From Nicotiana tabacum (taxonomy: Eukaryota; Streptophyta; Magnoliopsida; Solanales; Solanaceae): a DNA stretch of 64,000 nt. Position 1 is the first letter of the stretch. Each line of letters begins with the position of its first letter. The notes beneath the pieces are model-generated. The model saw nothing but the letters and a program-made list of their open reading frames with translations, was not told the origin of the DNA and did no database searches. Shown here piece after piece: positions 4,801-46,713 of this stretch. Made by a program: the position numbers and the translations under genes. The DNA lies in contig NC_134096.1 of assembly GCF_000715075.1 (NCBI RefSeq), positions 68,639,026 through 68,703,025 of the forward strand, written 5' to 3'.

Positions 4801-5865
4801 TGATTTATGGCCTGGGGGTATTCTTGTTGTTGATATTTGTGTAGTGGTATACGTACCTGTGTGAGCTTTATCTTGTGAAAGCTGTGAGAAAATATTCTAC
4901 GTGTTGTCCGTTCTTCTTCTTCCTTATGCTTATTTGCTGGTATGGACTATGTTAGGACACTTGCACAAGCATACACGTAGTTAAGCACTCTTATCGGATA
5001 AGAGGTGTTCTTGATATTGTTGAGCATAGATGCTCACCCTTGTTTACTTGACTTCTATGTGAGAATGGCTTTATTGGCACGTGAGTCGTCAGTGTGGTTA
5101 TGAGGTGTTATGAGGGCACATGATGCCAAGTGTTAGGGTTCAGGTATTGAGACCCGTGAGTTGTGAATTATCCGAGGTTCGGTACCTCGTGGAGTTGTTG
5201 ACTAAAACCTAATGTAAAAGCGGTTGTAATTACTGTGTTATTACTTGTCCTTGTTGTATTCGTTCCGGATTTAGGTTGTGTTCCATTCACTTTGTCTGCA
5301 TCATTTTCATGATATTCTGCTGATACTTGTTGTTTCATGCTTTAATGTCATTACTGTATTATGAGCCATATTGCATAATCTTTATGTAGACATCATACTT
5401 CTGTTATTCATGTACTTATATCTGTTCAGTTTATTAGACCAGTGGGTGTCTTGACTGTTCCTCGTCACTACTCCACCGAGGTTAGTCTTGATACTTACTA
5501 GGCACCGCTGTGGTTTGCTCATACTACTCTTCTGCACATTTTTGTGCATATCCAGGTACTTGTTCGTTAGCTAGCTGTGTGGACTGTTGCTGTCGAGACT
5601 CAAGGTAAACATGCTGCTGTGTTCGCAGGCTTCGGAGTCACCTTCCAGTTTTCGTTTTGCACTGTTTATTCTTATTTCTGGACAGTTGAATTTAGAAGTT
5701 TTCTAGCAAACACTCTGTAGAGCTTATGACTTGTACTTCCGGTTTTGGGAATTTTAAGAGATTCTATTTAAATAATGTTGTTGTTTTAATTATTGTTAGG
5801 CTTACCTAGTCCCTAAGACTAGGTGCCATCACGATACCCAACGGAGGAAAAATTGGGCCGTGGCA

Positions 5866-6097
5866 TCAGCTAACCCAATAGCACGTGTCCTCACCATCTG
5901 TGAGAGAATGGAGATACAAAGGTTCAAATTCCAAATTCAACAAATTCCGCATGACAGGAATGAAAGAAATGGAAATTTCCTAACAGTTTTGTAGCCTCTC
6001 AGAGATAAGTACAGACGTCTCTGTACCGATCTGCAAGACTCTACTAGACTCGTTCGTGACTCGTAAAACCTATGAACCTAGAGCTTTGAAACCAACT
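5866..6097 (-). mobile_element. Leader and extreme gag start of a minus-strand LTR element
   Basis: Read on the minus strand, the LTR end at 6098 is followed by a decayed primer site (GGTTTCAAAGC in place of GGTATCAGAGC), about 190 bp of leader, and the gag start MVRTR at 5897. The segment matches the leaders of B (17323-17524) and C (36809-37000). It is cut off abruptly at 5866, directly against the end of the element A LTR. Confidence 0.7.
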
Positions 6098-9000
6098 TGT
6101 CATGACCCAAAATCCCACCACAGGCGTCGTGATGGCACCTAGTCTCTAAGACTAGGTAAGCCGATTTAGATTACCTTTTGATGCCATTTTTGAAGCCATT
6201 TTTTGTTTTTGAATTAAAATCTAACAGCGGAAATAATTACAATACACAACCTCCCAAGACTGGTAGTACTGAGTCACGAACTCTAACTGAATACATGGAA
6301 TGATCACGAGGACCGAATATACAATACTGTTTGATTACAAATTAACAGTACAATGAAATGAAAAGACTCCAAGGGACTGCGACGGCCAAGCAGCTCTACC
6401 TTGAATCCTTATGATCGCACTTTAACTCTGCTCAAGTCCGATATCTCCAATACCTAGCTCAGCAAAAAAATGTGCAGAAGTGTAGTATGAGTACACCACG
6501 GACGGTACCCAGTAAGTATCAAGACTAACCTCAATAGAGTAGAGACGAAGTACAGTCAAGACACTCACTAGTCTAATAACCTGTGCAATATAATATACAA
6601 AATACTAGGAAACATATAGCAATAAGGGCAGAATAAAACAACCAATGGTATGCGCAGCAAGACAACAAGAATACCATAAATATCACTCAACAATTAATAA
6701 ATACATGTACGCCCAAATAATTTCAAGTTTTTCAAATAAATATCCTTCACATATAATTCTTCCAAATAACTCTCTTTCAAATGTAGTTTTTCTGAAATAA
6801 TTATTTTTTAAATACAATTCTTTCAATAAATATTTTCAAATATAATTTCCTTAAATAAGTATCTTTAAAATACAATTCTTTCATATAATTCTTTTTGAAT
6901 AAAAAACCTTCCAAATAAATATTTTGAATATAATTCTTTCGATTAAAACATCACCATGTGACACCTCATTTCATAATCATAAAAGAATACGGGTCTCAAC
7001 CCATTTTCATATTTTTTTTATAAACATGGGTCTGAGCACATTTTCATATTTATACGGCACTTCGTGCCCATAATTAAATCATCATATTTCCCCTGCATCT
7101 CGTGCCCTCATTTTATATCACAACTGCACGGACAATTCACGTGCCAAATATTCTCATTATTTACTCACGGCACCTCTTCACGACCCAAAATCCCACCACA
7201 TGCGTCGTGATGGCACCTAGTCTCTAAGACTAGGTAAGCCGATTTAGATTACCTTTTGATGCCATTTTTTAAAATTAAATAAGTAATTAAAACTAACAGC
7301 GGAACAAATATGAATACACAACCTCCCAAGACTGGTAGTACTGAGTCACGAACTCTAACTGAATACATGGAATGATCACGAAGACCGAATATACAATACT
7401 GTTTGATTACAAATTAACAGTACAATGAAATGAAAAGACTCCAAGGGACTGTGACGGCCAAGCAGCTCCACCTTGAATCCTTACTATCGCACTTTAACTC
7501 TGCTCAAGTCCGATATCTCCAATACCTAGCTCAGCAAAAAAATGTGCAGAATTGTAGTATGAGTACACCACGGACGGTACCCAGTAAGTATCAAGACTAA
7601 CCTCAATAGAGTAGAGACGAAGTACAGTCAAGACACTCACTAGTCTAATAACCTGTGCAATATAATATACAAAATACTAGGAAACATATAGCAATAAGGG
7701 CAGAATAAAACAACCAATGGTATGCGCAGCAAGACAACAAGAATACCATAAATATCACTCAACAATTAATAAATACATGTACGCCCAAATAATTTCAAGT
7801 TTTTCAAATAAATATCCTTCACATATAATTCTTCCAAATAACTCTCTTTCAAATGTAGTTTTTCTGAAATAATTATTTTTTAAATATAATTCTTTCAATA
7901 AATATTTTCAAATATAATTTCCTTAAATAAGTATCTTTAAAATACAATTCTTTCATATAATTCTTTTTGAATAAAAATCCTTCCAAATAAATATTTTGAA
8001 TATAATTCTTTCGATTAAAACATCACCATGTGACACCTCATTTCATAATCATAAAAAAAACGGGCTTTCATAAACATGGGTCTGAGCACATTTTCATATT
8101 TACACGGCACTTCGTGCCCATAATTAAATCATCATATTTCCCCTGCATCTCGTGCCCTCATTTTATATCACAACTGCATGGATAATTCACGTGCCAAATA
8201 TCCTCATTATTTACTCACGGCACCTCTTCACGACCCAAAATCCCACCACATGCGTCGTGATGGCACCTAGTCTCTAAGACTAGGTAAGCCGATTTAGATT
8301 ACCTTTTGATGCCATTTTTTAAAATTAAATAAGTAATTAAAACTAACAGCGGAACAAATATGAATACACAACCTCCCAAGACTGGTAGTACTGAGTCACG
8401 AACTCTAACTGAATACATGGAATGATCACGAAGACCGAATATACAATACTGTTTGATTACAAATTAACAGTACAATGAAATGAAAAGACTCCAAGGGACT
8501 GTGACGGCCAAGCAGCTCTACCTTGAATCCTTACTATCGCACTTTAACTCTGCTCAAGTCCGATATCTCCAATACCTAGCTCAGCAAAAAAATGTGCAGA
8601 ATTGTAGTATGAGTACACCACGGACGGTACCCAGTAAGTATCAAGACTAACCTCAATAGAGTAGAGACGAAGTACAGTCAAGACACTCACTAGTCTAATA
8701 ACCTGTGCAATATAATATACAAAATACTAGGAAACATATAGCAATAAGGGCAGAATAAAACAACCAATGGTATGCGCAGCAAGACAACAAGAATACCATA
8801 AATATCACTCAACAATTAATAAATACATGTACGCCCAAATAATTTCAAGTTTTTCAAATAAATATCCTTCACATATAATTCTTCCAAATAACTCTCTTTC
8901 AAATGTAGTTTTTCTGAAATAATTATTTTTTAAATATAATTCTTTCAATAAATATTTTCAAATATAATTTCCTTAAATAAGTATCTTTAAAATACAATTC

Positions 9001-11792
9001 TTTCATATAATTCTTTTTGAATAAAAATCCTTCCAAATAAATATTTTGAATATAATTCTTTCGATTAAAACATCACCATGTGACACCTCATTTCATAATC
9101 ATAAAAGAATACGGGTCTCAACCCATTTTCATATTTTTTTTATAAACATGGGTCTGAGCACATTTTCATATTTATACGGCACTTCGTGCCCATAATTAAA
9201 TCATCATATTTCCCCTGCATCTCGTGCCCTCATTTTATATCACAACTGCACGGACAATTCACGTGCCAAATATCCTCATTATTTACTCACGGCACCTCTT
9301 CACGACCCAAAATCCCACCACATGCGTCGTGATGGCACCTAGTCTCTAAGACTAGGTAAGCCGATTTAGATTACCTTTTGATGCCATTTTTTAAAATTAA
9401 ATAAGTAATTAAAACTAACAGCGGAACAAATATGAATACACAACCTCCCAAGACTGGTAGTACTGAGTCACGAACTCTAACTGAATACATGGAATGATCA
9501 CGAAGACCGAATATACAATACTGTTTGATTACAAATTAACAGTACAATGAAATGAAAAGACTCCAAGGGACTGTGACGGCCAAGCAGCTCTACCTTGAAT
9601 CCTTACTATCGCACTTTAACTCTGCTCAAGTCCGATATCTCCAATACCTAGCTCAGCAAAAAAATGTGCAGAAGTGTAGTATGAGTACACCACGGACGGT
9701 ACCCAGTAAGTATCAAGACTAACCTCAATAGAGTAGAGACGAAGTACAGTCAAGACACCCACTAGTCTAATAACCTGTGCAATATAATATACAAAATACT
9801 AGGAAACATATAGCAATAAGGGCAGAATAAAACAACCAATGGTATGCGCAGCAAGACAACAAGAATACCATAAATATCACTCAACAATTAATAAATACAT
9901 GTACGCCCAAATAATTTCAAGTTTTTCAAATAAATATCCTTCACATATAATTCTTCCAAATAACTCTCTTTCAAATGTAGTTTTTCTGAAATAATTATTT
10001 TTTAAATATAATTCTTTCAATAAATATTTTCAAATATAATTTCCTTAAATAAGTATCTTTAAAGTACAATTCTTTCATATAATTCTTTTTGAATAAAAAA
10101 CCTTCCAAATAAATATTTTGAATATAATTCTTTCGATTAAAACATCACCATGTGACACCTCATTTCATAATCATAAAAGAATACGGGTCTCAACCCATTT
10201 TCATATTTTTTTCATAAACATGGGTCTGAGCACATTTTCATATTTATACGGCACTTCGTGCCCATAATTAAATCATCATATTTTCCCTGCATCTCGTGCC
10301 CTCATTTTATATCACAACTGCACGGACAATTCACGTGCCAAATATCCTCATTATTTACTCACGGCACCTCTTCACGACCCAAAATCCCACCACATGCGTC
10401 GTGATGGCACCTAGTCTCTAAGACTAGGTAAGCCGATTTAGATTACCTTTTGATGCCATTTTTTAAAATTAAATAAGTAATTAAAACTAACAGCGGAACA
10501 AATATGAATACACAACCTCCCAAGACTGGTAGTACTGAGTCACGAACTCTAACTGAATACATGGAATGATCACGAAGACCGAATATACAATACTGTTTGA
10601 TTACAAATTAACAGTACAATGAAATGAAAAGACTCCAAGGGACTGTGACGGCCAAGCAGCTCTACCTTGAATCCTTACTATCGCACTTTAACTCTGCTCA
10701 AGTCCGATATCTCCAATACCTAGCTCAGCAAAAAAATGTGCAGAAGTGTAGTATGAGTACACCACGGACGGTACCCAGTAAGTATCAAGACTAACCTCAA
10801 TAGAGTAGAGACGAAGTACAGTCAAGACACTCACTAGTCTAATAACCTGTGCAATATAATATACAAAATACTAGGAAACATATAGCAATAAGGGCAGAAT
10901 AAAACAACCAATGGTATGCGCAGCAAGACAACAAGAATACCATAAATATCACTCAACAATTAATAAATACATGTACGCCCAAATAATTTCAAGTTTTTCA
11001 AATAAATATCCTTCACATATAATTCTTCCAAATAACTCTCTTTCAAATGTAGTTTTTCTGAAATAATTATTTTTTAAATATAATTCTTTCAATAAATATT
11101 TTCAAATATAATTTCCTTAAATAAGTATCTTTAAAATACAATTCTTTCATATAATTCTTTTTGAATAAAAATCCTTCCAAATAAATATTTTGAATATAAT
11201 TCTTTCGATTAAAACATCACCATGTGACACCTCATTTCATAATCATAAAAAAAACGGGCTTTCATAAACATGGGTCTGAGCACATTTTCATATTTACACG
11301 GCACTTCGTGCCCATAATTAAATCATCATATTTCCCCTGCATCTCGTGCCCTCATTTTATATCACAACTGCATGGATAATTCACGTGCCAAATATCCTCA
11401 TTATTTACTCACGGCACCTCTTCACGACCCAAAATCCCACCACATGCGTCGTGATGGCACCTAGTCTCTAAGACTAGGTAAGCCGATTTAGATTACCTTT
11501 TGATGCCATTTTTTTAAAATTAAATAAGTAATTAAAACTAACAGCGGAACAAATATGAATACACAACCTCCCAAGACTGGTAGTACTGAGTCACGAACTC
11601 TAACTGAATACATGGAATGATCACGAGGACCGAATATACAATACTGTTTGATTACAAATTAATTGTACAATGAAATGAAAAGACTCCAAGGGACTGCGAC
11701 GGCCAAGCAACTCTACCTTGAATCCTTACAATCGCGTTTTAACTCAGCTCAAGTCTGATATCTCCAATACCTGGCTCTGCAAAAAAATGTGG
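6098..11792 (-). repeat. Tandem array of an LTR-end segment (5 full units of 1050-1078 bp plus a partial sixth)
   Basis: Units begin at 6101, 7179, 8229, 9301, 10373 and 11423 with CACGACCCAAAATCCCACCA (CATG in unit 1). Lengths are 1078, 1050, 1072, 1072 and 1050 bp; the sixth stops after about 370 bp where it joins the element B LTR. Each unit is the last ~1.05 kb of a minus-oriented LTR, including the U5 hairpin (6136-6156 in unit 1). Units 2-5 differ from each other at only a handful of positions, while unit 1 and the partial unit 6 are more diverged, as expected at array edges. Units 2 and 5 share the same ~22 bp deletion. No open frame over 60 codons exists in it. Confidence 0.95.
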
Positions 11793-12393: not shown

Positions 12394-12409
12394 TCTTACC
12401 CCTCTTAAA
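12394..12409 (-). promoter_or_regulatory. Polypurine tract of element B
   Basis: On the minus strand TTTAAGAGGGGTAAGA directly precedes the LTR start TGTAACGACC. The pol stop codon lies in this tract (LFEDERLF-like tail, then TAA). Confidence 0.85.
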
Positions 12410-12739
12410 ACAATCGTTCGTCCTCGAATGAGTATAAATACATACCTGAAACCGTGAAAAGATGAGGGTACTGGATGTGCATATCCTGTTCGGCCTCCCA
12501 AGTTGCCTCCTCGACTGGTTGTCCCCTCCATTGAACCTTCATGGAAGAAATGTTCTTTGACCTAAGCCTTCTGACCTGCCTGTCTAAAATAGCCAATGGC
12601 TCCTCAACATAGGATAGATCCTTGTCCAATTGAACTGAGCCGAAATCCAACACATGGAACGGATCGCCGTGATACTTTTGGAGCATAGAAACATAGAATA
12701 CCGGATGAACTACTGCTAGACTAGGAGGCAAGGTTAAGC
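12405..12739 (-). pseudogene. Integrase C-terminus and chromodomain of element B
   Basis: The frame reads LPPSLAVVHPVFYVSMLQKY (integrase C-terminal GPY/F-like end), then VEEPLAILDRQVRRLRSK and KVQWRGQPVEEATWEAEQDM, a chromodomain of the type at the end of Del/Tekay integrases, thought to steer integration to marked heterochromatin. The aromatic W of EEATWE is kept. It ends SFEDERLF just before the LTR. This is the best preserved part of the element, yet a frameshift near 12745 separates it from the rest of integrase. Confidence 0.88.
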
Positions 12740-14019
12740 TCATAAGCAACCCCCCCCAACTCGACGCAACACCTCAAATGGACCAATGAACCTTGGGTTA
12801 AACTTGCCCTTTTGTCCAAACCTCATAATGCCCTTCATAGGTGAAACTCGAAGCAAGACTCGCTCACCAACCATGAATGCAACATCACGAACCTTCCGGT
12901 CCGCATAACCTTTCTGTCTGGACTGGGCCGTGTGAAGTCTATCCTGAATCACCTTAACCTTCTCCAAAGCATCCTGAACCAAGTCTGTACCTAATAATCT
13001 GGCCTCGCCGTGCTCGAACCAACCCACTGGGGACCGACATCGCCTACCATACAGAGACTCATACGGTGCCATCTGAATGCTGGACTGATAACTGTTGTTG
13101 TAGGCAAACTCCGCAAGTGGCAAGAACTAGTCCCAAGCACCCCCAAAATCTATCACACACGTACGGAGCATATCCTCTAATATCTGAATAGTGCGCTCGG
13201 ACTGCCCGTCTGTCTGAGGGTGAAATGTTATGCTCAACCCTAGTACCCAATACCCAAATCATGTTGTATAGCTCTCCAGAACCATGATGTAAACTGCGTA
13301 CCCCGGTCAGAGATAATAGATACTGGTACGCCATGAAGCTTGACGATCTCACGAATGTTGATTCGAGCTAGCTGCTCGGAAGAATAGGTAGTCATCACAG
13401 TAATGAAATGAGGCAACTTGGTCAACCTATACACAATCACCCAAACTGCATCAAACCTCTGCTGAGTCCGTGGGAGTCCAACAACAAAATCCATAGTGAT
13501 CCGCTCCCATTTCCATTCCAGAATCTCTAACTTCTGAAGCAATCCACCTAGTCGTTGATGCTCATATTTTACGTGCTGGAAATTCAGACATTGAGCCACA
13601 TACTCTACTATGTTCTTCTCCATTCTCCTCTGCCAGTAATGTTGTTTCAAGTCCTGATACATCTTTACGGCACCCGGATGAATAGAGTACCGCGAACTGT
13701 GAGACTCCTGGAGAATCAACTCACGCAAACTATCTGCATTGGGCACACATAGCCTGCCCTGCATCCTCAATGCACCATCATCTCCAATAGTGACTTTCTT
13801 AGCATCACCGTGCTGGACCGTGTCCTTAAGGATAAGCAGATGGGGGTCATCATACTGACGCTCCCTGATACAATCATAAAGAGAAGACCGAGAGACCACA
13901 AAAGCCAATACTCGATTCGGCTCAGAAATATCCAATCTCACAAACTGGCTGGCTAAGGCCTGAACATCCAACACCAATGGCCTCTCTGCTACTGGTAGAT
14001 ATGCTAAACTCCTCAAACT
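12740..14019 (-). pseudogene. Integrase (zinc-binding and catalytic core) of element B
   Basis: The N-terminal zinc-binding domain reads HSSRYSIHPGAVKMYQDLKQ followed by VAQCLNFQHVKYEHQ, where the second cysteine of the CxxC pair is Phe. The core keeps the first Asp (WERITMDFVVGLPRT) and the second (SIISDRGTQFTSWFW). The frame then breaks near 13240-13352, and the end resumes as PLAEFAYNNSYQSSIQMAPY through GRRCRSPVGWFE. Frame changes and the lost cysteine show it is inactive. The role in an intact element is to cut chromosomal DNA and join the cDNA to it. Confidence 0.88.
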
Positions 14020-17509: not shown

Positions 17510-17521
17510 GCTCTAATACCA
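17510..17521 (-). promoter_or_regulatory. Primer binding site of element B
   Basis: The minus strand reads TGGTATTAGAGC three bases after the LTR end. It differs by one transition from TGGTATCAGAGC, the complement of the 3' end of plant initiator Met-tRNA. The leader from here to the gag start (17323-17509) contains no gene. Confidence 0.85.
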
Positions 17522-18084
17522 ACTTGTCACGACCCAACTTCCCCTCCGTGTGACGTCATGATGGCACCTAGTCTCTAAAACTAGGTAAGCCTAACATTTT
17601 ATGGAATAATGAAATAAAAATAAAAATTAAACCAACTACTCAAAAATACACAACAAATTCCAAAACCCGGAACATCGTGAATCACAAACTAAAGAAGGAA
17701 TAATCTAGTGTCTCTATACGTCAGAGTCTAACAAGGAAAATATAGAAAATAATGGACAAGAGTGGAAGGGACTCTGAGGTATGCGGATGCGGAAGATATA
17801 CCTTGAAGTCTGCAAAGTTGTCCCGGTTCACTGATCGTGCGGCTGATAAGGTGCACATGGATCTGCACACGAAAAACATGTGCAGAGAGTAGCATGAGTA
17901 CACCATAAGCGGTGCCCAGTAAGTACCAAGCCTAACCTCAGTCGAATAGTGACGAGGTCAGGTCAGGGCCCGACTAGTAAATATATAATAAAACAATATA
18001 GAGTGTAATATCACAATAAAATAAAGGCTGAAATTTAACAACGATGGAATCATAGAAGGTAACAACTCAGTACACAAAAATACA

Positions 18085-20129: not shown

Positions 20130-21022
20130 GGGCCAAACGCCTTGGCAGTATATTGAGATGCATCTTTGGTTCGTGCCGGTCGACCCTCAGCAGTGTACAC
20201 ACCACTCTGGATTAGGTCGTACAACCTCAGCATAATCGTGCGTGATACCGCTAGCAGTCTAGATATTCATGAGATTCCCCTTCTATTGAGACCTGGTATT
20301 TATGTGGCGTTCCTTACCCGTTTAAGACTACCTTTGATATTTCTGATCTGTTGAGATAACATATGACATTCGAGAGGTTTATATTGTCAAAAGAAATGTT
20401 GGAGGATTATGCTAGTTTCTGTTTTACCTCATTATTATTGTTGTGCTTCATATCTGTTTATGATTTATCATACTGCTTTATTGGACCACTAGTAAGTGTC
20501 GATGTCGACCCCTCGTCACTAGTTCTTCGGGATAAGTCTAGATACTTACTGGCTATGCGTTGATTTACATACTCATGTTATACTTCTGCACTAAATGTGT
20601 AGGATCTGACAGGTTTATTTTGTGGTCATCTTGGCGCGTAGGCGCAACTGCCGAGGAGACTTAATGGTGAGCTGCATTTCGGGCTAAGTATCGCAGCCCA
20701 CAGAGTCTTCATCATATTATTTACTTTATCCTATCTAACTTACATTCCGGACAAATTTTGTATTATTATTGCACTTGTGACGCCGTGTTTTGGTATATTC
20801 TAGTTGATGTTTACAGATTTGCATGTTGTTATCACCTTTTGTTTTTATGCATCACTAATTAAGTATGTACCCATGATTATAAATGCTTGAATTTCCTTAC
20901 TTAATAAAATTTATGATTTCGAACATAATAAATTGAATAATTAACGTGATAGTTCACTGTTGGCTTGCCTAGCGGCGACGTTGGGCGCCATCACAGCCTA
21001 TAGCGGGTTTTGGGTCGTGACA
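20130..21022 (+). repeat. Truncated LTR end of a further element
   Basis: The last ~890 bp of a plus-oriented LTR, ending GGGTTTTGGGTCGTGACA. It carries the U5 hairpin (20967-20986; arms GCCTAGC and GTTGGGC) and the GGGCGCCATCACA phrase typical of this superfamily. Its left part is cut by element B, so B probably inserted into it or was joined there. No gene is visible. Confidence 0.75.
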
Positions 21023-21423: not shown

Positions 21424-23632
21424 TGTAAGGCCTCGTAAAAGTTCACCTAGAATTTAAGTTTTTATGGTGTCAAGGAAAGCTAATGTGCCACAAACCAGAT
21501 TTTTGGATTGTGCAATGCATCGCGGAGTTGGTAGAAGAATATTTAGAAAACGACAATTCTGTGGTCCATTATGCTATAGCAGATCTGTTCCGCTGACCAT
21601 GGAATCACCACGGAATGAATCAGAAGCAACTCAAATTTGGAAAGCATTTTGTGGCCATTCTGCTGGCCACATAACCATTATGATGCCGCAAAATTGTATC
21701 GCGGAATTGACCAGACCTAACCCAGAATTTGAAAATCATTTTGTGGCCATTATGTTGGCAGCATAACCATTCTACTACCGCAAAATGGCATCGCGGAATT
21801 GACATACCATTTTGTGACCATTCTGCTGGCCACATATCTGTTCTGCTAAGATAGAATTACCATCGGGGGGTTATTTTTGGAAATTATCTTATCAGACCCT
21901 ATTTTGATATAAGGCCTTAGGGGATTATTTTATAAGATATAACTTGATGTTTTACAGTGAGGGTATCAATTAGAGAGAGAGAGAGAAGCTCTATCAAATT
22001 ATACTCTCCAAATCTTGCACAAACCTTGGGAATTCAAGAGGGAAACTCGCAAAGACCTTCTACTTACAAGGTAAGACTTCATCCCTAGATTTTATGCAAA
22101 GTTTAATAATGGGTTTAAGTAGGATGTTATCATGGTTTAGGGATTGTGGGATGGCGACTGGAATCCATAATCCGTCAATCTCGAATTTGGGAGCATGTAC
22201 AGGCTAGGAAATGTGATTTTGGTGGGTTTGAAGCAAATGATTGGGCATGCATGTGACTAATGATGATTGATGGGTGTTGTAAAGATATTGTATATTGGTT
22301 GGCTGCTTGAAAATTAATGGTGAGAGTAGAGAAATTTCTATTATGGGACCTTGTAATCGATTTACCATATTAGGTGTTTGATGAAATGTTAGAATGGGCT
22401 AAATCTAAGAACACCTTCCTAACTATGGTTAAATTTGGTTATGTTTCTATAGATTGAGGTTGCTAGGAGTATTGGGACGTTGTAGTAATCTAAGGAAAGC
22501 TCAAGAAAGATATGTTGGCTAAACTTCTCTCTTATAATCGAATTCCATGATGTTCCCGTAAGCTTCAAGTATGGTTGGCCCAGGTTCCTAATTTCCATGT
22601 TCCGAGTTGTTCCTAATAAAGTCTATTTTTCTGAGTAAGCACTGTGTTGAAAGATGTATATACTCAAAACATGTTCCAATTGCTCTTATCTCATCATGAT
22701 CTCTTTCGGGAATGTGTTCAACTATGGTTAAAATTAAAATGTTATAACTTCAATTCATGTTTCGAATAGAAGTTCATTATGCTTAACTTGGAAAGAAAAC
22801 CCAATGTGCTTAAAACTCATATATCTCATATGCATATCAAGTTTATAATTCCAAATGTCCTTATTGTTGATAAACTATGACTATGTTTGGAAGTGAAAGA
22901 AGTGAGAGTGAGATATAAAATGTTGCCATGGTTGTTGTAACTAGTGCATATGATTTGAATCTATGTTTCAATCATAAATCACCATGATCTCCTTTGTAAG
23001 AGTTTACAATGTGTTTTTAGTCCTTATTTACCCATGAGTTGAAACTGTGCATTGGCGTTTTTTGAGAAGTATTTCAAAAAGAAATGGTGTATTACTCGTT
23101 TATGATTTTTAACTTGTGTTGCTATTGCAAGTCATTTTGTTCTGTATCTTGGAAAGAAAACTATTGTGTTTAAATCCTTCATTACTATTGAACTTAAGGT
23201 TATGATTTCTGGAATATTCCATATGTTGATGTTTATGATAATGATCCTTGAAAGTCAACAAATGAAAGTGTGGAATATAAAATACGGTCGTCGTGCCATG
23301 GAAGAATACCTCTATGGATGGCCAAGAGAGCCCATGGAATAATAATGTCGTGGGTGGTGTTCAATGTTGGATAATGAAATAGAAGTGTTGGTATTTTTCA
23401 AATATGTTTTCCCACATAACTATGAACTTATAACATTTTGAAAATTGTAAATAGATCTCTTTTGAGTAATGAAAAAAGAATGTGGAACACTTTACTCCTC
23501 TCATGTCTATCCCTTATTACTGATTCTTATATCGTTCATGGGTAAGGTTGGGTAGAAGGCATCAAGTAGGCTTGCTTGACTAGGGTATTTCGGTTGAGCA
23601 TCGGTCGTGCTCCCCGAGGTTGGGGTGTGACA
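21424..23632 (+). repeat. Solo LTR (2209 bp) with 5 bp target-site duplication
   Basis: It starts TGTAAGGCCTCG and ends GGTTGGGGTGTGACA, and is flanked on both sides by CATAG (21419-21423 and 23633-23637). The perfect duplication and TG...CA ends show a true insertion reduced to one LTR by LTR-LTR recombination. The family differs from the TGTAACGACC group. The interior holds no gene; short frames near 21464-21835 arise from the repeat at 21640-21845. Confidence 0.92.
21640..21845 (+). repeat. Three tandem ~90 bp repeats in the solo LTR
   Basis: Copies beginning near 21650, 21740 and 21810 share ATTTTGTGGCCATTCTGCTG, CACATAACCATT and TCGCGGAATTGAC. The phrase GTGGCCATTCTGCTGGCCAC is itself an inverted repeat with 7 bp arms. 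Confidence 0.8.
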
Positions 23633-23637
23633 CATAG

Positions 23638-36985: not shown

Positions 36986-36997
36986 GTTCTGATACCA
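36986..36997 (-). promoter_or_regulatory. Primer binding site of element C
   Basis: The minus strand reads TGGTATCAGAAC, one base from the initiator Met-tRNA complement, three bases after the LTR end at 37001. The leader 36809-36985 has no gene. Confidence 0.85.
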
Positions 36998-37000
36998 TGT

Positions 37001-39643
37001 TGTCACGATCCAATTCTGGTTTAGGCCGTGATGGTGCCCAGCGCCGTTGCTAGGCAAGCCGACGGTGAACAATCTAGTGATTTCCATTTTTAATAAGTCA
37101 AACAGCCGACTTTCTTTAAAATTTAGTGAATTTAACAAATAACAGAATTTAAAGTGAACAAAACAAAAATAGCTAAATGAAATCATAAACGTAGAAATAC
37201 AACCCAAAATCATAAGTCTACTAGTGTGTGCCAAGATCCAGTGTCACAAGTATATAGGCTACTAGTAGAATATACAAAAGAATTCTAATCTACTATCTGA
37301 AATGGGATAGACAGAACAAATAAAGAAAGAAAAAGACTATGACTGCTGCAGAACGGCTCGGAAGGGCAGCTCACCGTGTAGTCTTGTAGCGGGGATCAAA
37401 TATGCCCACCGGACTGGTAATCAGATGTACCTGTTCAGATCCTGCACATCTAGTATAGAAGTGTGGCATGAGTACATAAACAACATGTACTCAGTAAGTA
37501 TCCAATCTAACCTCGAAGAAGTAGTGATGAGGTGTCGACTTTGACACCTACTATGGGCCAACAATGATATATCAAATATATACTAAGCATGGATTTCATG
37601 AACAATACTTAAAGCTCAATATCAGGAAATAGTAAATTCTTCTTTCGCAAGTATTAAATCCCAAGTTTAGTTTCATTATTTAACACCTTGTAATTCAAGG
37701 CATTTTAAGAAATGTAAATCATGAATAGTTCCAAAGGTTTTCATGCGCATATTATGTCAAGGTCGTACGGCTTGATCCAACATAATATTTAAATTGTGCA
37801 CTGCCGAGGGTTGACCAGTACGAACCATAGATACATCTATCTACTACTGAGGCGTTCGGCCCGCTCCACAAATAGAAAATATTTCAAATAACACACAAAT
37901 TCTCATTTATATTCAAGTGTTCCATTCGCAACTTTAAGTAAGTAACTTTAAGCTTTTTCAATTCTTTTATCAACTTCCAATATGCCTTAAGCAATTAAAT
38001 CAACAAATGGGAGTGCAAACATTTCAAGTATAACATGGTATAGGTCCTAGACTACCCGGACAATAGCATAATTAGTAGCTACGTACGGACTCTTGTCACC
38101 TCGTACGTATGTAGCCCCCACACGTAGGAGCACATTTTAGTTATAATTTACCTATGGGGTTAATTCCCTCTTATAAGGTTAGAAAAGAGACTTGCCTCGT
38201 CTCAAAACCTACTTTCCAATTCAAAAAATGCGCTCAAACCTCCAACTTTGATTCCAAACGACTCGAAACTAGTCAAACATTACATACATCAATAAATCTA
38301 TGCTCAAAAGTTCATATCTCCACTATTAGAGTGATTACCCAACCTAAATTGCAAGATTCGTAAGATTCACCCCCGAACCCACAAACTCGGATTCCGGAAA
38401 TATTTTAAGAACGTTGCTACCCATAACCTTAGGAACATAAATATATAGTTTTCACTAAGTTTTATAATCATTTTCGTGGTAAAATCTCATTTTTATTAAA
38501 CCCTAGGTTTTTCATCTAAGCCCATGATTTCTACCAATTTTGATGTTGAAATCTACCCATAATCTATGTATTAAAATCACATTAAGGTAGGAATTACTTA
38601 CCCTCTATAGCTAGGTTGAAGTCTCCCTTTTTGAAGCTCTAAAATGGCCCAAATGTGTGAAGAATGGGAGAAAAATGCCTAAGTCCCGTATTAAATGAAG
38701 TTCATTGCCTCCAGCGATTTCCGCACCTGCGGTCATAGGGCCGCACATTCGCCCTCGCTTCTACGGACAAAGTTCCGCTTTTGCGGAACTCCCCTGGGCC
38801 GGCTGGCATCGCTTCTGCGGATGGTTTTTTGCTTCTGCGGAGGATGGGCCAAACTTACGGAATCTGGGCAGCCCTTCCCTGGCCGCACCTACGAGGCTTG
38901 GCTCGCACCTGTGGCTAGCCATGCGCAGGTGCGATTATGAAAGACCTGATGCTTTAACCGTTGCTCCAAATTCTCATCTTGGTCCGAGCCTTGTACGATT
39001 GACACTCGGGGCCCCCGGGGCCCCACCCGAATATGCCAAAAATTTTGGTATCATAAAACGGACTCGCTTGAACTATCGGAATGCCCAAAACAACATCAAA
39101 ACTAAGAATCGCACCCCAAAACCAATTGAATCGAACTTCAAGTTCTTCAAGTTACTTCCAATGCACCAAAACGTACTTAAACTATTTGGAATGACACCAA
39201 ATTTTGCATGCAAGTCTTAAATGACATTACAGAAATATTCTCGGTCTCGGAATTCTATTTTGACCTCGATATCACCAAAAACTGCTCCAAACCAAATTTA
39301 AAGAACTTCAAGATTCTTCAAGAACCAACTTTCACTATTAGGCGCCAAAATGCTCCCGGGTCATCCAAAACTCAATCTGAACATACGCCCAAGTCTGAAA
39401 TCATCATACAAATCTATTGGAATCATCAAATCCCAATTCTGAGGTCGTTTACTCAAAATATTGACCGAAGTCAAACTTGGCCTTTTTAACCAACCTTAAA
39501 GAACCAAGTGTTCTGATTTCAACCCGAACCCTTCCAAATCGCGAACCAACCATCCCCGCAAGTCATAAATTAATAAAAGTACGTACGAGATATCTTATTT
39601 AGGGGAACGGGATTTTAAAAAGTAAAATGACCAGTCGGGTCGA
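37001..39643 (-). repeat. 5' LTR of element C (about 2643 bp)
   Basis: The left edge is TGTCACGATCC; the right edge stops at GGTCG, where TTACA should follow but an ATATATATAT run begins. It contains the U5 hairpin (37036-37055), a second donor-like motif (here GGCAAGT, 38147-38200), a CpG cassette (38705-38933) and the core block (39001-39043). Confidence 0.92.
38705..38933 (-). repeat. CpG-rich inverted-repeat cassette, right LTR of element C
   Basis: The counterpart of 30785-31022 with the same CCGCACCTGCG and CTTCTGCGGA phrases, many altered independently. It starts about 710 bp from the LTR start. Confidence 0.78.
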
Positions 39644-39774: not shown

Positions 39775-39932
39775 TGTCATGACCCAAAATCCCACCATAG
39801 GCATCGTGATGGCACTTAGTCTCTAAGACTAAGTAAGCCAATTATAATAACAATTCAAGTCATTTTACAAAAAATAGATAATTGAAACCAACAGCGAAAA
39901 TATTCAAACAACCTCCCAAGACCGGTAATATA
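39775..39932 (-). repeat. Inverted LTR-end fragment of the D family
   Basis: It begins TGTCATGACCCAAAATCCCA and is the reverse complement of the D-type LTR end (compare 42727-42880), including the U5 hairpin. It is joined head-on to the truncated element D 5' LTR at about 39933. Confidence 0.88.
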
Positions 39933-42880
39933 GATTTTGGCTATAGCACTGTGCATTGCCAGAAATTGCTACTGCACATGGCTGACTTTGGCAGCTTATA
40001 TCTCGCAATATATAAGGAATTGGGAGATGAGCAAAACATGAAAGTTGTAGCCCTTGGTGTTTAGTTTACAAGAAGTTAAACCATTCATCATTTGGACATT
40101 TGTAAAGAGAGTTATGATCGATTTTTTAAAAGTTGGTAATGTTGTTTTACTGGGCTGAGGCAAATCGCAAATGTCAAATGCGACTTGCCTGGACAGATTC
40201 TTAAAACGAGGGCTTCGGCCATTTTAACATATTTGGAGTTATGGAAATCGGATTGAAGAAATTTTTGAGACGATTTTCACCATATGGATTGGGGTAAGTG
40301 TTCTATATCCAAAAGTTATTATACTTCATGATTCCATGGTTGTTTTCATCAATTATTAGTGAATTAAATGGAAGAAATTGGAGAAATTTGTAAAACTTTT
40401 CAAAAACAAAAATTTAAGATTTGGAGGTCGATTCGTTATCAGAATTTTATAAATTGGTATGGTTGAACTCGTATCGAAATGGGTGTTCGGATTTCGTAAA
40501 AAATCTATCGGGTTCTGAGAGGCGAGTCACGCATTGACTTTTGTTTACTTTTTAATGTGAAATTTTAAGTTGACGTTTTATTATCCGAAATTATTTTTGA
40601 TGAATTTTAATAAAGTTATACAAATAATTTGGATAGATTTGAGCTGTCCGGAGGTCAATTCAAGCAAGAATGCGACTTTGGAATATCGACATAACTTCAA
40701 AAGGTAAGTATCTTGCTTAACCTTGAGTGGGGGAATTACCCCTTAGGCACTGGAATTGGAAAATGTGAAAAAGCCGTGTACGTGAGGTGACGAGCACGTA
40801 CTCGGGCTTATATGTGCAAAACTTATTATTTTAAAGTCTTAATCATTTTTACGTATTAAACTGAATAATTGTGGACATTTATTTAATCCTCTATTTGTCG
40901 TGCCTCAAATCCTTATTTGTTGAATTTGTTTTTATATGATAAATCGGTGTGATTGCTACTTGAATTTTTATGTGAATTCTGTGTGTTTGTTGATTCAATA
41001 TTCCCCGAAAATAATTATATTATGGATTTTACTAACTACAAATAATTAAGTAAATAAGTTTTAAAAGAGGCATTATATATTTATCATAAATTTTGATTTA
41101 AGAAGGCGTTGTCCTATGCTGAGTTACTTTTTCCATCCTTGTGGTTGTTTTTGAGGTTTTATATACGTTGTGTGGAGCCTTGGACTAATTGCTGTGGAAT
41201 TAATTGATTTTATCGTATCTTTGGAATTGGTTGTGACCTATGGGTAATTCGTGACATGTTGTAATATTTGAGCACTTGATGTGCAATTTATGATGCGTTG
41301 TGATATTTGAGCACTTGAGGTACAAGTTGTATTATACTGTGATATTTACTTTTGGGACTATGAGGCGGTACCTCGGGAGCTCTCCATGTCTTGCATATTT
41401 ACTTTTGGGACTACGAGATGGTACCTCGGGAGCTCTCCATGTCTTGCATATTTACTTTTGGGACTACGAGGCAGTACCTCAAGAGCTCCCCCTATCTTGC
41501 ATATTTATATTTGGGACTACGATGCGGTACCTCGGGATCTCCCCGTGTCTTGAATATTTACTTTTGGGACTACGAGGCGATACCTCAGGAGCTCCCCTGT
41601 CGTGTATTTACTTCTAGGACTACGAGGCGGTACCTCGGGAGCACCCCTGTTGGTTACTCATATTGTATTATGTTGGCTTTTCCTACGACACTTTGAGGAT
41701 TTGTATTTCTGGTTTATACTTTTTTCGGTGAATGAGTTGTTTTAAATAAAAGAAATTACTATTATGTTTTAATTTAATAAGTTTTACATCCAAATCAGTA
41801 GTTTATCGGATGCTTTATTTAAATTGAAATGTCATTTTCTTCACTAAAACTATTTCATAAATAAATTTATTTCTTTGTTGACTTCTTATTTGATTTAAAA
41901 ATCGTTACCTTACTTTATTGAAAGTAAATTGATCATGCAGATTTTATATATTGATATGTTTTGCACGTGAGTTGTCTTTGCGATTATGATAGATATATGG
42001 GCACGAGGTGCCGTGGAAATACGAAAGTGGACTGAGACCCGTATTATTTATGATTATAAATGAGGTGTCACAGGATGACTTTTATTTGAAAGAATTATAT
42101 TCAAAATATTGTTTGAAAGGACTATATTCGAAAGATATTTATTTGAAAGAATTATATTTGAAATATATTTATTTGAAGGAAGTATATTAGAAATATATTT
42201 ATTGGAAAGGATTATATTCTAAACATTTTTATTTGAAAAACTTATAGATGAAAGATGTATATTTTGCAGGACTTGATTATTTGGTTGTACTTGTGTTCAT
42301 TATTGTTTGAGAAATAGTTATGGTATTCTTGTTGCCTTGTTGTTTATATCAGTGGTTGATTATTGTGGTTATTATTGCTATTAGCTTCCTATTATTTTGT
42401 ATGCTATATTGCACAGGTTATTAGACTAGTGAGTATCTTGACTGTACCTCGTCACTACTCCACCAAGGTTAGTCTTGATACTTACTGGGTACCGACTGTG
42501 ATGTACTCATACTACACTTCTGCATATTTTTGTGCAGAGCTAGGTAATGGAGATATCGGACTCAAACAGAGTTAGAGTGTAATCGCAAGAATTCAAGGTA
42601 GAGCTGCTTGGTCGTCGCAGTCCCTTGGAGTCTTTCTATTTTATTGTATTATCAATTCTTATTCGAACAATATTGTGTATTCGATCCTCGAGGTCATTTC
42701 AAGTATTCAGTTAGAGTTCGTGACTCTATATTACCAGTCTTGGGAGGTTGTTTCAATATTTCCGCTGGTGGTTTCGATTTTTATTTTTTAAATGGCTTGA
42801 ATTGTTATTATAATTGACTTACTTAGTCTTAGAGACTAAGTGCCATCACGATGCCTGTGGTGGGATTTTGGGTCGTGACA
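39933..42880 (+). repeat. 5' LTR of element D, 5' truncated
   Basis: It starts in the third of the ~208 bp repeats found in the 3' LTR (equivalent to 49146) and ends GGTCGTGACA. It includes GGGGTAAGTG near 40294, GGTAAGTATC with CTTAACC and a GGGG/CCCC hairpin (40701-40747), hairpin repeats (41345-41680), and a perfect 9 bp U5 hairpin (42821-42841). It keeps about 1.07 kb (40823-41893) that the 3' LTR has lost. Confidence 0.9.
41345..41680 (+). repeat. Six tandem ~53 bp hairpin repeats in the element D LTR
   Basis: Copies begin near 41345, 41398, 41451, 41505, 41557 and 41606 with TTTACTTTTGGGACTACGAG. The centre is CGAGGCGGTACCTCG, a 5 bp stem with a 5-base loop. They are related to the repeats in B at 18085-18330. 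Overlapping open frames (YFWDYE-type repeats) are artefacts. Confidence 0.92.
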
Positions 42881-42883
42881 AGT

Positions 42884-42894
42884 TGGTATCAGAG
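42884..42894 (+). promoter_or_regulatory. Primer binding site of element D
   Basis: TGGTATCAGAG, three bases after the LTR end, matches the initiator Met-tRNA complement. Confidence 0.88.
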
Positions 42895-43953
42895 TTTTAA
42901 GTTCATAGGTTCTACGAGTCACAAACGAGTTTAGTAGAGTTTTGCAGATCGATACGGAGACGTCTATACGTATCTTCGAGAGGCTACAGAGCTAGTAGGA
43001 AAATTTCCATTTTTTTCATTCCTTATCGTGCAGCATTTATTCAGCTTGAAGCATATATCTTATGTTCTTTTGCATCCACTCATGTATGAAATTGTGCACT
43101 CGGTATCAACTATACGCCAACGGTTCGTGATACTACAAAGGGGTTATAAGGGAGCCAGGGTTGCTCAACCATTGTTACCACGTGTCATCCAGATCGAGGA
43201 TGCGGAAGTTTTAAGAGATCATTCAGTTGTGCAGATGGGGGTGCAGCAGGTTCTGACATCTTGTTGATTAGTACGATCTTAAGAAGGTCTAATTAGTTGC
43301 CTAATCCTCACAATCGTGGTAGGGTCACGAGGTGGATGTAGATCTGAAGATAGTTGGTGGTATTAGAGACTATGTGGTTCATATGGGATTTCCATTTAGT
43401 GAAGGGTACATACTAGCAGTCAATGTACTAGAGGAAGCGAGTTTAACTATCACGAGGATGACATGCACCAAATAAATAGCTTGAGGTGTCTTATGACTGG
43501 TGTCGTACAAGCGGTGAAGGTTAGTATTGTGGATCATCAGATAGTGTCCTATGGCTTCGCGCCAAGTGAAGGGAGTCCACTATCAACGATCATATTGTGG
43601 GGTCATGTGTTATATCAATTTTGGCCTGAGATGTATTTATGTGATATTAAAAGGTTCTCCGAAATTTGTATATGATTAAGAGATGAGATTTGTATGGGAT
43701 GATGCTGGGACTTGCAGTATTACCCCGTCCTCAATAATTCTACATTTTAGTATCAGCGGGGCCATGGAAACAATTTTAGAATACTCGGAGTGCTCTAGTA
43801 AGTTCATTTAATGCACCACCGACACATGGTTCCTATAATGGTTATTCCAGTTATCTGGCACAGACCCTGTATGAGCAGCCGAATCTACAGAGGGGTTGTT
43901 ATCAGTGTGGTAATACTAGGCACATCATGAGAGATTGTCCCAGACTTAGGAGA
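42895..43953 (+). pseudogene. Leader and gag remnant of element D, zinc knuckle intact
   Basis: The leader matches that of F. The gag core is unreadable, but the end gives YEQPNLQRGCYQCGNTRHIM with a complete C-x2-C-x4-H-x4-C knuckle at 43897-43938. The frame is interrupted after RLRR by solo LTR E and resumes at 46719 as GGFNQNTHVTGSIPV. Part of the stretch near 43530-43680 resembles F around 55020-55200. Confidence 0.75.
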
Positions 43954-46713
43954 TGTCACAACCCAATTCTATCTTAGGCCATAATGGCGCCCAGCACTGT
44001 TGCTAGGCAAGCCAACAGTGAACAATCTAGTGATTCTCCTTGGTAATAAGTTTTTCAAGTAAATAACTTTTTTTAATTTGAAAGATTTAATAAATAACAG
44101 ATTTAGAATAATTAAAACGAAAGCAGCTAAATGCAATCATAACTGCAAAAATAAAGCCAAAACCACAAGTCTACTAGTGTGTGTGCCAATACCTGGTGTC
44201 ACAAGTGTATGGGCTACTAGTAGAATATACAAAAGATTTCTTCTCTATTGTCAGAAATGAGAAGACAGAACAATGACAACAATAAAAAGGACTCTGGTTG
44301 CTGCAGAATGGCTCGGAAGGGCAGCTCACCATGTAGTCTCGTAACCTAGAACAAGCGTGCGCGCCAAACTGATACCCAGATGCACCTACCTCAGATCCTG
44401 CACATTTAAGTACAGAAGTATAGTGTGAGTACATAAACAACATGTACCCAATAAGTATCCAGTCTAACCTTGAAGAAGTAGTGACGAGGGGTCGACTGTG
44501 ACACTTACTATGGGCTAACAATAATATGTCAAAATTATAATTAAGCATGTATTACATGAAAAATACTGAAACTCCACAACATGAAGCAATCCTTTCACAA
44601 TTGTTAAGTCCCTGATTCATTGTTTTCCATCATTTAACAATTTACATCTCAAGCCAATGAAGTAATATCAAATATAATTGGATCCAAAGATTTATCACAC
44701 ACAAATCATGTCGAGTTCGTATGACCCGATCCAACATAATATTTAAACTGTGCACTGCTGAGGGTCGAACGGCACGAACCATAGATGCATCTATCTGCTA
44801 CCGAGGCATTCCGCCCGCTCCACAAATAGGAAATACTCTAAAGAAACACAAATTCTCAATATCAGTCAAGTGTTCCATTCACAACTTCAAGTAAGTGAAA
44901 TTTAACCTTTTTAAAAAATTCTTTTATAAATTTCCAATATGACTTAAGCAATTAAATTAACAAGTAAGGATGCAAACATCTTCAAGTATAGCATGATATG
45001 GGTCCTAGACTACCCGGACAATAGCATAATTAGTAGCTTTGTACGAACTCTCATCACCTCGTGCATACGTAGCCCCCACAAATAGAAAACACACGTTAAT
45101 TAATTCACCTATGGGGTAAATTCCCTCTTACAAGGTTAGAAAAGATACTTACCTCGTCTCAAAGCCTACTTTCCGGTCCAAGATTGCGCTCAACCCTCAA
45201 TTCGGTGACGAACAATCCAAAACTAGTCAAATGGTTTAATAATAAATCAATACATGTTCAAAAGTTCATATTCCAACTATTGAAGAGATTACCCAATCCC
45301 AAATATATGATTCCTAAAATTCACCCCCCCGGGCCCACGTACCTGGATTTCAGAAATTTTCAAAGAAAGTTGTTACTCATAATCTCACGAACTCAAATAT
45401 ATGATTTTTACTAAATTCCATAACAAATTTCGTGGTTAAATCTCATTTTTATCAAAAACCTAGGTTTTCACCTAAAACCCAAGATTTTCACTAATTTACA
45501 TGTTATAGTCTACCCATAAACTATGTATTTCACTCACATTTGCTAGGAATTACTTACCTCAATTAGTTGATGAAAATCCCTCTCTAACCAACCCCAAAAT
45601 CGCCCCCAAGAAGTGTAAGAAATGAGCAAAAATGCTCAAACCCCGATTTAAAACAACTCACTGCCCAGCGAATCTCGCATCTGCGAGGACACTGCCGTAC
45701 CCGCGATGCCGGTTCTGCGGAGAAAAATCTCACATGTGCGGTCCTCCCCCAGGTATCCAATGTTTGCATCTGTAGAGTTGGAGCCACTCCTGCGCGACCG
45801 CTCGTGCGACCTTCGACGTGTGCCTGCAGACTCGGTCGCTTTTGCGATTTCCCTCAATCGCACCTGCGCGTTCACAGGTGCACAAACTTGCACGCATTTG
45901 CGGTCCATGGAAAAATTCTCCCAGCCACTTTTGCAACACGAACCACGCATCTGCGGGCTTGCACCTGCGGCCAAAATCTCGCAAGTGCCGGCACACCAGA
46001 ACCAGTGCACCAGCAGCCCCTTTTTGAGTATTGACTCAATCCACGCATCGTCCGAACGGCATCCGGGGCTCCCGAGGCCCCGTCCAAACATACCAACAAG
46101 TCTATAAACATATACAAACTTTCTCAAACTCTCTAAACATGTAAAACAACAGCAAAACCCAAGGATCACACCCCCGAAATCAATCGAATCAATATATGAA
46201 CTTCAAGTTCTTCAATTTACTCCCAACGTGCCGAAACGTACTTAAACTATTCAGAATGACACCAAATTTTGTGTGCAAGTCTTAAATGACATTACGGATC
46301 TATTCCCGATCTTGAAATTCCATTTGGACCTTGATATAATCAAAACCTACTTCAAACCAAATTCAAAGAACTTCAAAAACCTTCAAAGAACCAACCTTCA
46401 CTATTAGGCGCCGAAACGCTCCCGGATCATCCAAAACCAGATCCGAACATACGCCCAAGTCTGAAATTATTATACAAACCTACTGGAACCGTAAAATATT
46501 GATTTCGAGGTCGTTTACTCAAAACGTTGACTGAAGTCACACTTGGCCTTTTAAGGCCAACTTAAGAAACCAAGTGTTCCGATTTCAACCCAAACCCTTC
46601 CAAATCCCGAACTAACCATCCCCGCAAGTCAAAAAATGATAAAAGCACATACGGGGAGTCTAATTTAGGGGAACGAGATTCTAGAAAGCAAAATTACCGG
46701 TCGGGTCATTACA
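43954..46713 (-). repeat. Element E: solo LTR (2760 bp) with GGAGA target-site duplication
   Basis: TGTCACAACCC at the left, GGGTCATTACA at the right, flanked by GGAGA at 43949-43953 and 46714-46718. It splits the gag of element D exactly at the duplication. The family is that of element C. It holds the U5 hairpin (43989-44008), a GAGGTAAGT donor-like motif with CTAAC (45107-45160), another GAGGTAAGTAATTCC near 45556, a cassette at 45660-45990 and the core block (46062-46102). Frames such as 45648-46169 are cassette artefacts. Confidence 0.95.
45660..45990 (-). repeat. CpG-rich inverted-repeat cassette in solo LTR E
   Basis: Repeated TCGCATCTGCGA, CGCACCTGCGCG and CACCTGCGG phrases with CGCA/TGCG arms, beginning about 720 bp from the LTR start. 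Confidence 0.8.

What the first reader, a model, noticed from the sequence alone, without database searches (positions are those of the whole stretch)
5804..5824. A U5 hairpin is conserved by compensatory change in all TGTAACGACC-type LTRs
About 40-60 bp before each LTR end, in sense orientation, sits a 7-9 bp stem. Arms are ACCTAGTC/GACTAGGT (A, 5804-5824), ACTTAGTCT/AGACTAAGT (D, 42821-42841 and 61515-61535), ACCTAGT/ACTAGGT (B, 17566-17586, and the array), GCCTAGC/GCTGGGC (C and E), ACCTAGC/GTTAGGT (F), GCCTAGC/GTTGGGC (20967-20986) and GCCTAGC/GTTAGGC (63712-63734). Pair 1 switches A-U to G-C, pair 3 C-G to U-A, and pairs 4 and 6 use G.U wobbles that pair only in the sense RNA. This pattern suggests selection on RNA structure next to the primer site, perhaps for priming or packaging.
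Basis: partly seen in the sequence, partly recalled or inferred. Interest (0 to 1): 0.78.

Follow-up and report, generated by a model that had tools for sequence, protein, structure and literature searches.

The report
Paired RNA hairpins beside retrotransposon primer
The last stretch of these plant retrotransposons' long terminal repeats encodes an RNA hairpin that keeps its shape while its letters change, right beside the site where copying into DNA begins, which suggests that the fold itself is needed to copy the element.

Summary
The window has 17 copies, 12 of them in the last 60-69 bp of an LTR and 5 in a tandem array derived from one. In 13 distinct copies, 91 of 91 cells of the seven core pairs are standard pairs despite 12-23 inferred arm changes; a tree-based null never did as well (0 of 5000 on each of three trees). 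Core wobbles fit the sense RNA: 7 G.U, 0 A.C.

The window's genome (4.0 Gb) adds more. A flank pattern matched 7,551 times; in 97 distinct listed copies pairs 1-5 hold in 459 of 485 cells, but pair 6 is G-G in 58 of 100, the mark of a shorter stem with a bulged G. A second LTR family (1,722 matches) has the same plan with an unrelated stem: in 100 listed copies G.U outnumbers A.C 208 to 17.

The likeliest role resembles the retroviral U5-IR stem, acting when reverse transcription starts from the adjacent tRNA site. That role is inferred; no function was tested.

The parts
5799..5865 (+). U5 module of LTR A: H1 basal GGC 5799-5801, UU bulge 5802-5803, arms 5804-5811/5817-5824, GCC 5825-5827; H2 5829-5863; LTR end CA 5864-5865
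20962..21022 (+). U5 module, family x (8-bp stem, GCGA loop, two G.U)
42816..42880 (+). U5 module, family D (9-bp stem; one basal pair A.C)
53951..54010 (+). U5 module, 5' LTR of element F (7-bp stem)
61072..61131 (+). U5 module, 3' LTR of element F
61510..61574 (+). U5 module, family D LTR that element F interrupts (basal GAC/GUC pairs)
63671..63739 (-). U5 module, family y (8-bp stem, one G.U)
43954..44013 (-). U5 module, LTR C (8-bp H1; 11-pair H2 rich in G.U)
39775..39839 (-). U5 module, family D
37001..37060 (-). U5 module, 5' LTR of element E (7-bp stem)
17525..17591 (-). U5 module, 5' LTR of element B (9-bp stem, one U.G)
6098..6162 (-). U5 module with PBS, B6136 type
7176..7240 (-). 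U5 module in tandem array, copy 1 (no LTR terminus)
8226..8290 (-). U5 module in tandem array, copy 2 (no LTR terminus)
9298..9362 (-). U5 module in tandem array, copy 3 (no LTR terminus)
10370..10434 (-). U5 module in tandem array, copy 4 (no LTR terminus)
11420..11484 (-). U5 module in tandem array, copy 5 (no LTR terminus)
42884..42895 (+). primer binding site, initiator-Met type (assignment recalled), 1 mismatch, 3 nt after LTR end
54014..54025 (+). primer binding site of element F, 12 of 12 match
36986..36997 (-). primer binding site of element E, 1 mismatch
17510..17521 (-). primer binding site of element B, 1 mismatch
6083..6094 (-). primer binding site, B6136 type, 2 mismatches
12408..12773 (-). 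integrase C-terminal piece with Chromo domain PF00385 (element B)
23568..23633 (+). possible U5 end of the second LTR family with the same two-hairpin plan (fold not significant, z -0.85)

Best explanation
The last 60-69 nt of U5 form, in the genomic RNA, a structured module directly 5' of the tRNA primer site. Its firm part is hairpin H1: a basal GGC/GCC helix, a UU bulge, a 5-11 bp stem whose letters drift in compensating steps, and a free loop. A second hairpin H2 often follows and ends 1-2 nt before the LTR terminus. I propose that it works like the U5-IR stem of retroviruses: it holds the U5/PBS junction in a form that lets the tRNA primer anneal and lets reverse transcriptase start strong-stop DNA. 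Shown: the hairpin in sequence, its location, compensation, sense-strand bias of wobbles, recurrence in two LTR families. Inferred: that it folds in the cell, its presence in the transcript (the start site must lie upstream), and the role in initiation.
For: Unprompted consensus fold of 13 copies gives both hairpins. Core pairs intact in 91 of 91 cells against a tree-based null. PBS starts 3 nt after the LTR end in 5 of 5 window elements where a PBS was found, and 7,551 exact genome matches join GGCTT...CATCACG...GTGACA to AGTTGGTATCAGAGC. H1 core pair probabilities in 5 leader sequences, with 0, 60 or 150 nt of upstream sequence, are 0.87-1.0 in 4 and 0.65-0.96 in the fifth, element F. The second family keeps GGC-UU-stem-GCC with an unrelated stem. 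Arm, bulge and basal columns vary less than the upstream flank and the H1 loop. Precedent: a U5-IR-like structure needed for reverse transcription of Tf1 (Lin and Levin 1998; title only, seen in reference lists).
Against: No functional data. The U5-leader pairing that accompanies the avian retroviral U5-IR (recalled) was looked for and not found (H1 arm to post-PBS pairing probability at most 0.01). With 34 nt upstream and 46 nt downstream of the anchor, the single best fold lacks H1 in 2 of 17 copies, 42842 and 61098. Antisense folds are more stable than sense in 3 of 13 and have the more negative z-score in 7 of 13. H2 is weaker: null 27, 515 and 519 of 5000 on three trees; in leader context it is predicted at all three lengths in 2 of 5 elements, at the longest only in a third, never in two. 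In 68 of 100 genome copies pair 6 does not form in the plain register. Two shuffle measures were not exceptional: pairs with a both-sided change 105 of 500, pair types 429 of 500.
Confidence: 0.5

Rival explanations
1. Packaging or dimerization signal: H1/H2, together with the conserved leader after the PBS, is bound by Gag so that genomic RNA enters particles.
For: The leader downstream of the PBS is also conserved and its consensus fold contains an irregular hairpin with two both-sided changes in 5 sequences. A weak zinc-knuckle match in Gag (zf-CCHC 18.3 bits, below its cut-off of 20.8).
Against: H1 loops differ between families, which does not suit a fixed kissing loop; the module abuts the PBS rather than the gag start.
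Confidence: 0.25
2. Control of RNA 3'-end formation or translation by a structured U5/5'-UTR.
For: U5 lies just after R, where polyadenylation is decided (general knowledge); a stable hairpin early in the leader could slow scanning. No call tests this.
Against: Nothing here tests it: R borders, start sites and poly(A) sites were not mapped. The module's position is tied to the LTR end and the PBS.
Confidence: 0.12
3. DNA-level inverted repeat: two half-sites bound by integrase or a host factor, changing together as binding specificity changes.
For: H2 ends at the putative integrase attachment site; CTAG cores look like half-sites in family 1; several window copies fold as well on the antisense strand.
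Against: G.T wobbles break a DNA inverted repeat: G.U to A.C is 208 to 17 in family 2 and 13 to 1 in the H1 core. Spacing between arms varies (6-9 nt in the window; hairpin region 21-28 nt in the genome sample), against a fixed dimer.
Confidence: 0.06
4. No selection: shared descent, or hairpin arms copying each other by template switching, mimics compensation.
For: Rows are related; on the 97-row tree there are only 2 kept double changes, 3 broken ones, and 14 against 7 single changes to G.U and A.C.
Against: Template copying should erase wobbles (inference), yet they abound. Tree-based nulls rarely or never reach the observed pairing. An unrelated stem in family 2 keeps the same plan.
Confidence: 0.07

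Closest known systems
Retroviral U5-IR stem-loop (avian sarcoma/leukosis virus; recalled, and mentioned in passages of PMC3601003)
   Same: A hairpin in U5 immediately 5' of the tRNA primer site, proposed to serve initiation of reverse transcription.
   Different: Here the host is a plant chromovirus; H1 has a UU-bulged GGC/GCC base, a second hairpin often follows, and no U5-leader stem is predicted.
Tf1 U5-IR-like structure of fission yeast (Lin and Levin 1998, title only; not held)
   Same: LTR retrotransposon with a U5 RNA structure near the primer site.
   Different: Tf1 self-primes from its own 5' end (PMC4600332 passages); these elements carry an initiator-Met type PBS (assignment recalled).
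Putative U3/U5 attachment sites of plant Del (Tekay) elements (Cruz et al. 2014, PMC4029996, abstract and sections 14 and 19)
   Same: Overlaps the last 11 bp of the LTR; family 2 ends carry the GGG of their type A U5 att.
   Different: They describe conserved letters at the integrase site; the words hairpin, secondary structure and inverted repeat do not occur. The module here reaches about 50 nt further in and is conserved as structure.

Membership tests
Tekay/Del chromoviruses (plant Ty3/gypsy) | Chromodomain at the integrase C-terminus | tested here: met
   PF00385 27.7 bits (cut-off 25.1) at 12408-12773, shown for element B only
Tekay/Del chromoviruses (plant Ty3/gypsy) | Gag, RVP_2 protease, RT, RNase H, integrase | tested here: inconclusive
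   Found in pieces over two decayed elements, not all in one; RVT_1 only in element E; Retrotrans_gag 24.0 and rve 24.4 bits lie below cut-offs of 24.1 and 32.6 (12 pieces searched)
Tekay/Del chromoviruses (plant Ty3/gypsy) | Type A U5 att: GGG at positions -8 to -10 | tested here: inconclusive
   Met by family 2 ends GGGGCGTGACA; family 1 ends GGGTCGTGACA have T at -8, GGG one place further in
Tekay/Del chromoviruses (plant Ty3/gypsy) | Placement in the RT/integrase tree | not tested
   No tree was built; the name rests on the chromodomain, the LTR ends and recall
Retroviral U5-IR stem | Hairpin in U5 directly 5' of the PBS | tested here: met
Retroviral U5-IR stem | Structure conserved rather than sequence | tested here: met
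Retroviral U5-IR stem | U5-leader stem flanking the PBS (recalled feature) | tested here: not met
   Predicted pairing probability at most 0.01 in 5 elements
Retroviral U5-IR stem | Needed for initiation of reverse transcription | not testable with these tools
   bench experiment
Rfam RNA family | Match at gathering score | tested here: not met
   Only an LSU rRNA match in the window

The most novel reading that the evidence does not exclude
The module is a primer-sensing switch. The GCCA that closes H1 imitates the 3' CCA of the tRNA and can instead pair with the UGG that opens the PBS, enclosing H2; when the tRNA anneals, GCCA is released to close H1 and the start site is freed. Plant Del elements would then carry a conserved two-state initiation element.
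Probability: 0.07. Interest if true: 0.8.

Novelty: new variant of a known kind. Interest (0 to 1): 0.5.

Why it matters
In the open papers I could search, RNA structure in plant LTR retrotransposons is seldom treated (2, 0 and 4 listed papers). Thousands of copies in one genome make this module unusually testable: sequence drift has already done the compensatory-mutation experiment. If it governs the start of reverse transcription, it is a handle on how elements that fill plant genomes replicate, and it gives a structural signature for annotating LTR ends.

Tried and rejected
Rejected. (1) U5-leader alternative pairing (H1 5' arm with CTAGGTT after the PBS), suggested by a matching change in element D: pairing probability at most 0.01. 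(2) GCCA pairing with the PBS, seen in the consensus fold: at most 0.37 in element E, 0.14 in F, 0 in the other three; kept as the novel case. (3) Basal-pair compensation in D61536: ambiguous because copies decay after insertion. (4) U3-start inverted repeat AACGACC/GGTCGTT: by eye only partly kept, not pursued.

Led nowhere. Pattern scans of viral contigs and genome contigs and protein-guided scans gave no relative. Plasmid search: one match, E 0.3. Sequence strings searched in papers: 5 papers, unrelated by title. Whether family 2 also sits beside the PBS: not answered (all busy).

Full report
WHAT THE WINDOW IS. The window is nested Ty3/gypsy retrotransposon DNA. It lies in contig C17 of a 3,996,098,646-base genome in 700 contigs. 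Among the 120 listed relatives of one integrase piece, those that bear an organism name include many from Nicotiana, with Tanacetum, Solanum, Lycium and others, so the host is probably Nicotiana or a near relative (inference). Pieces of Gag, protease, RT, RNase H, integrase and a chromodomain were found over two elements. LTRs begin TGTAACGACC or close variants (exact at 2315, 57731, 31742, 20129, 12393) and end GGGTCGTGACA or close variants; in the 5 places where a primer binding site was found, it starts 3 nt after the LTR end. Element F has LTRs 50596-54010 and 57731-61131 (92.7% identical) and is nested in a D-type LTR that appears to run 48043-50595 and 61131-61574.

CHECK OF THE OBSERVATION. 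Among the matches to GCCATCACG with up to 2 mismatches I picked 17 U5 ends by eye: 6 on the + strand and 11 on the - strand, 5 of the latter in a tandem array. A covariance model of 13 distinct ends, scanned with filters off, returned the same 17 at 63.6-90.6 bits; the next best hit has 16.5 bits. These 17 include the model's training copies, so the scan shows completeness and not independent support. Of the LTR starts, the one at 31742 (- strand) aligns to element E only as far as 29628 and lacks the module; the one at 12393 runs into the array.

THE STRUCTURE. RNAalifold, given only the alignment, predicted two hairpins. H1: GGC, bulge UU, 8 pairs beginning RCYUAGY, loop, GCC. H2: UCACGAC...GUCGUGA, ending 2 nt before the LTR end. 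In single-sequence folds of the module alone the H1 stem is in the best fold of 13 of 13 copies and H2 in 9 of 13; z-scores run from -1.94 to -4.71. With more flank the best fold lacks H1 in 2 of 17 copies, 42842 and 61098. Antisense: the sense fold is the more stable in 10 of 13, but the antisense z-score is the more negative in 7 of 13 (A, the three D, F61098, B6136, array), because copies without wobbles fold on both strands; x and C collapse (from -26.9 and -26.7 to -14.4 and -13.7 kcal/mol). So fold energy alone does not settle the strand; the wobble counts below do more.

COVARIATION IN THE WINDOW. Pair counts: pair 1 A-U 9, G-C 4; pair 2 C-G 13; pair 3 C-G 10, U-A 3; pair 4 U-A 10, U.G 3; pair 5 A-U 13; pair 6 G-C 9, G.U 4; pair 7 U-A 7, C-G 6; pair 8 C-G 6, A-U 2, G-C 1, U.G 1, unpaired 3. 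Over both hairpins 95.2% of cells pair, against 89.3% after shuffling (0 of 500 as high) and 26-42% when the partner is slid; cells changed on both sides are 17 against 6.2 (0 of 500), but the number of pairs with such a change (105 of 500) and of pair types (429 of 500) is not exceptional. A null that places the same number of changes at random on a tree gave 13.9-17.1 broken core cells; 0 were observed; 0 of 5000 on each of three trees. H2 did less well: 7 of 91 cells broken, with 27, 515 and 519 of 5000 simulations as good. Deep branches of the tree are uncertain because the LTRs align poorly upstream of the module.

SENSE OR ANTISENSE. In the core seven pairs the sense reading has 7 G.U and 0 A.C cells; with pair 8 and the base 9 and 3; in H2 12 and 7. 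The antisense reading breaks 7 of 91 core cells. With 8 further ends from 20 10-kb stretches spaced 4 Mb apart on contig C1, 21 distinct rows give G.U to A.C 13 to 1 in the H1 core, 2 to 3 in the base, 1 to 1 at pair 8 and 21 to 9 in H2 (this alignment was fitted to the model's structure and leans towards it).

GENOME-WIDE. The B6136-type string with up to 3 mismatches occurs 31,212 times, control 0. A pattern that fixes only the flanks of H1, the LTR end and the PBS matches 7,551 times, control 0; the tool calls its counts lower bounds. The first 100 listed copies, all from the first 63 Mb of contig C1, were analysed. Pairs 1-5 form standard pairs in 459 of 485 cells of 97 distinct rows; the null mean of broken cells is 128.2 (sd 51.5) against 26 observed, 2 of 1000 as low. 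Cells in pairs 1-5 of all 100: 22 G.U, 8 A.C. On the tree, single changes from a Watson-Crick pair went 14 to G.U, 7 to A.C and 14 to other states, with 2 kept and 3 broken double changes; this is the weakest support.

A SECOND FAMILY. One end in the random sample had the same plan with an unrelated 11-bp stem (L027). A pattern for it, fixing pairs 1-2, the base and H2 letters, matched 1,722 times, control 0. In the 100 listed copies pairs 3-9 are 456 Watson-Crick, 208 G.U, 17 A.C, 19 other of 700 cells; four of seven positions have G.U in 25-83 copies while A.C never exceeds 8 copies at any position; the sense strand folds better than the antisense in 99 of 100. For family 1 H1 the figure is 92 of 100 (1 equal), for H2 80 of 100. 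Sixty-five of the 66 distinct middles give 134 to 14. Copies are related and no tree was made for this family, so these are not independent events. It is still the strongest sign that the RNA, read in the sense direction, is what is kept. The window's own possible copy of this family (23568-23633) folds no better than chance (z -0.85), and whether this family sits beside a PBS could not be checked.

H2. In a subfamily with an upper H2 stem xGUUC/GAACy, 80 of 100 listed copies (of 587 matches) show G-C 47, A-U 21, G.U 7, A.C 4, other 1 at the outer pair (Fisher 1.2e-9, relatedness ignored), but pair 5 has 8 A.C against 3 G.U, and the total over five pairs is 20 G.U to 13 A.C. In leader context H2 is predicted at all three lengths tried in F and E, only at the longest in B17565, and not in D42842 and B6136. 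H2 is therefore likely but less certain than H1.

MECHANISM. H1 lies between R and the PBS (R border inferred) and its core is the favoured fold in every leader context tried (5 elements, 3 lengths). Position, strand bias and precedent point to a U5-IR-like element for the start of reverse transcription; packaging is the main rival. The U5-leader stem known from avian retroviruses (recalled) is not predicted here. Stems with different letters and the same outline, a UU bulge found in all 13 window rows (fixed by the pattern in the genome samples) and free loops suggest that a protein (RT, integrase or Gag) or the primer complex reads shape rather than letters (inference).

LITERATURE. Cruz et al. 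2014 (PMC4029996; abstract, sections 14 and 19, word search) describe 10- and 11-bp attachment sites of Del elements; the words hairpin, secondary structure and inverted repeat do not occur in it, nor in the 2016 sequel PMC4963935 (word search). Benachenhou et al. 2013 (PMC3601003; passages) mention the retroviral U5-IR loop but could not build models for plant Metaviridae LTRs. Neumann et al. 2019 (PMC6317226; passages) has no hairpin, stem-loop or secondary structure. Lin and Levin 1998 was seen as a title only (not held). The listings of searches showed no report of this module; most listed papers were not opened, one search listed 12 of 3,590, and subscription papers are not covered.

Noticed in passing
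25913-27708 (+): Rfam LSU_rRNA_bacteria match (807.6 bits), probably an organelle rRNA insertion in nuclear DNA (inference).
   Followed up: no
6098-11834: Tandem array of units about 1,050-1,072 bp apart, five of them ending in a U5 module with GGGTCGTGAAG in place of the LTR terminus.
   Followed up: partly
2315, 20129, 31742, 50596, 57731 (LTR starts): LTR starts carry an inverted repeat AACGACC...GGTCGTT that also resembles the U5 end; by eye kept only in part, with wobbles and A.C mismatches.
   Followed up: partly
after PBS at 54014, 42884, 36997, 17521, 6094: About 100 nt of leader after the PBS is well conserved in 5 elements and its consensus fold has an irregular hairpin with two both-sided changes.
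   Followed up: partly
42884-42905: Element D has a change after the PBS that matches the change in its H1 5' arm; alternative pairing is not favoured by folding.
   Followed up: yes
L027:2952-3030 (+): U5 end of a second LTR family with the same H1 plan and an unrelated 11-bp stem.
   Followed up: yes
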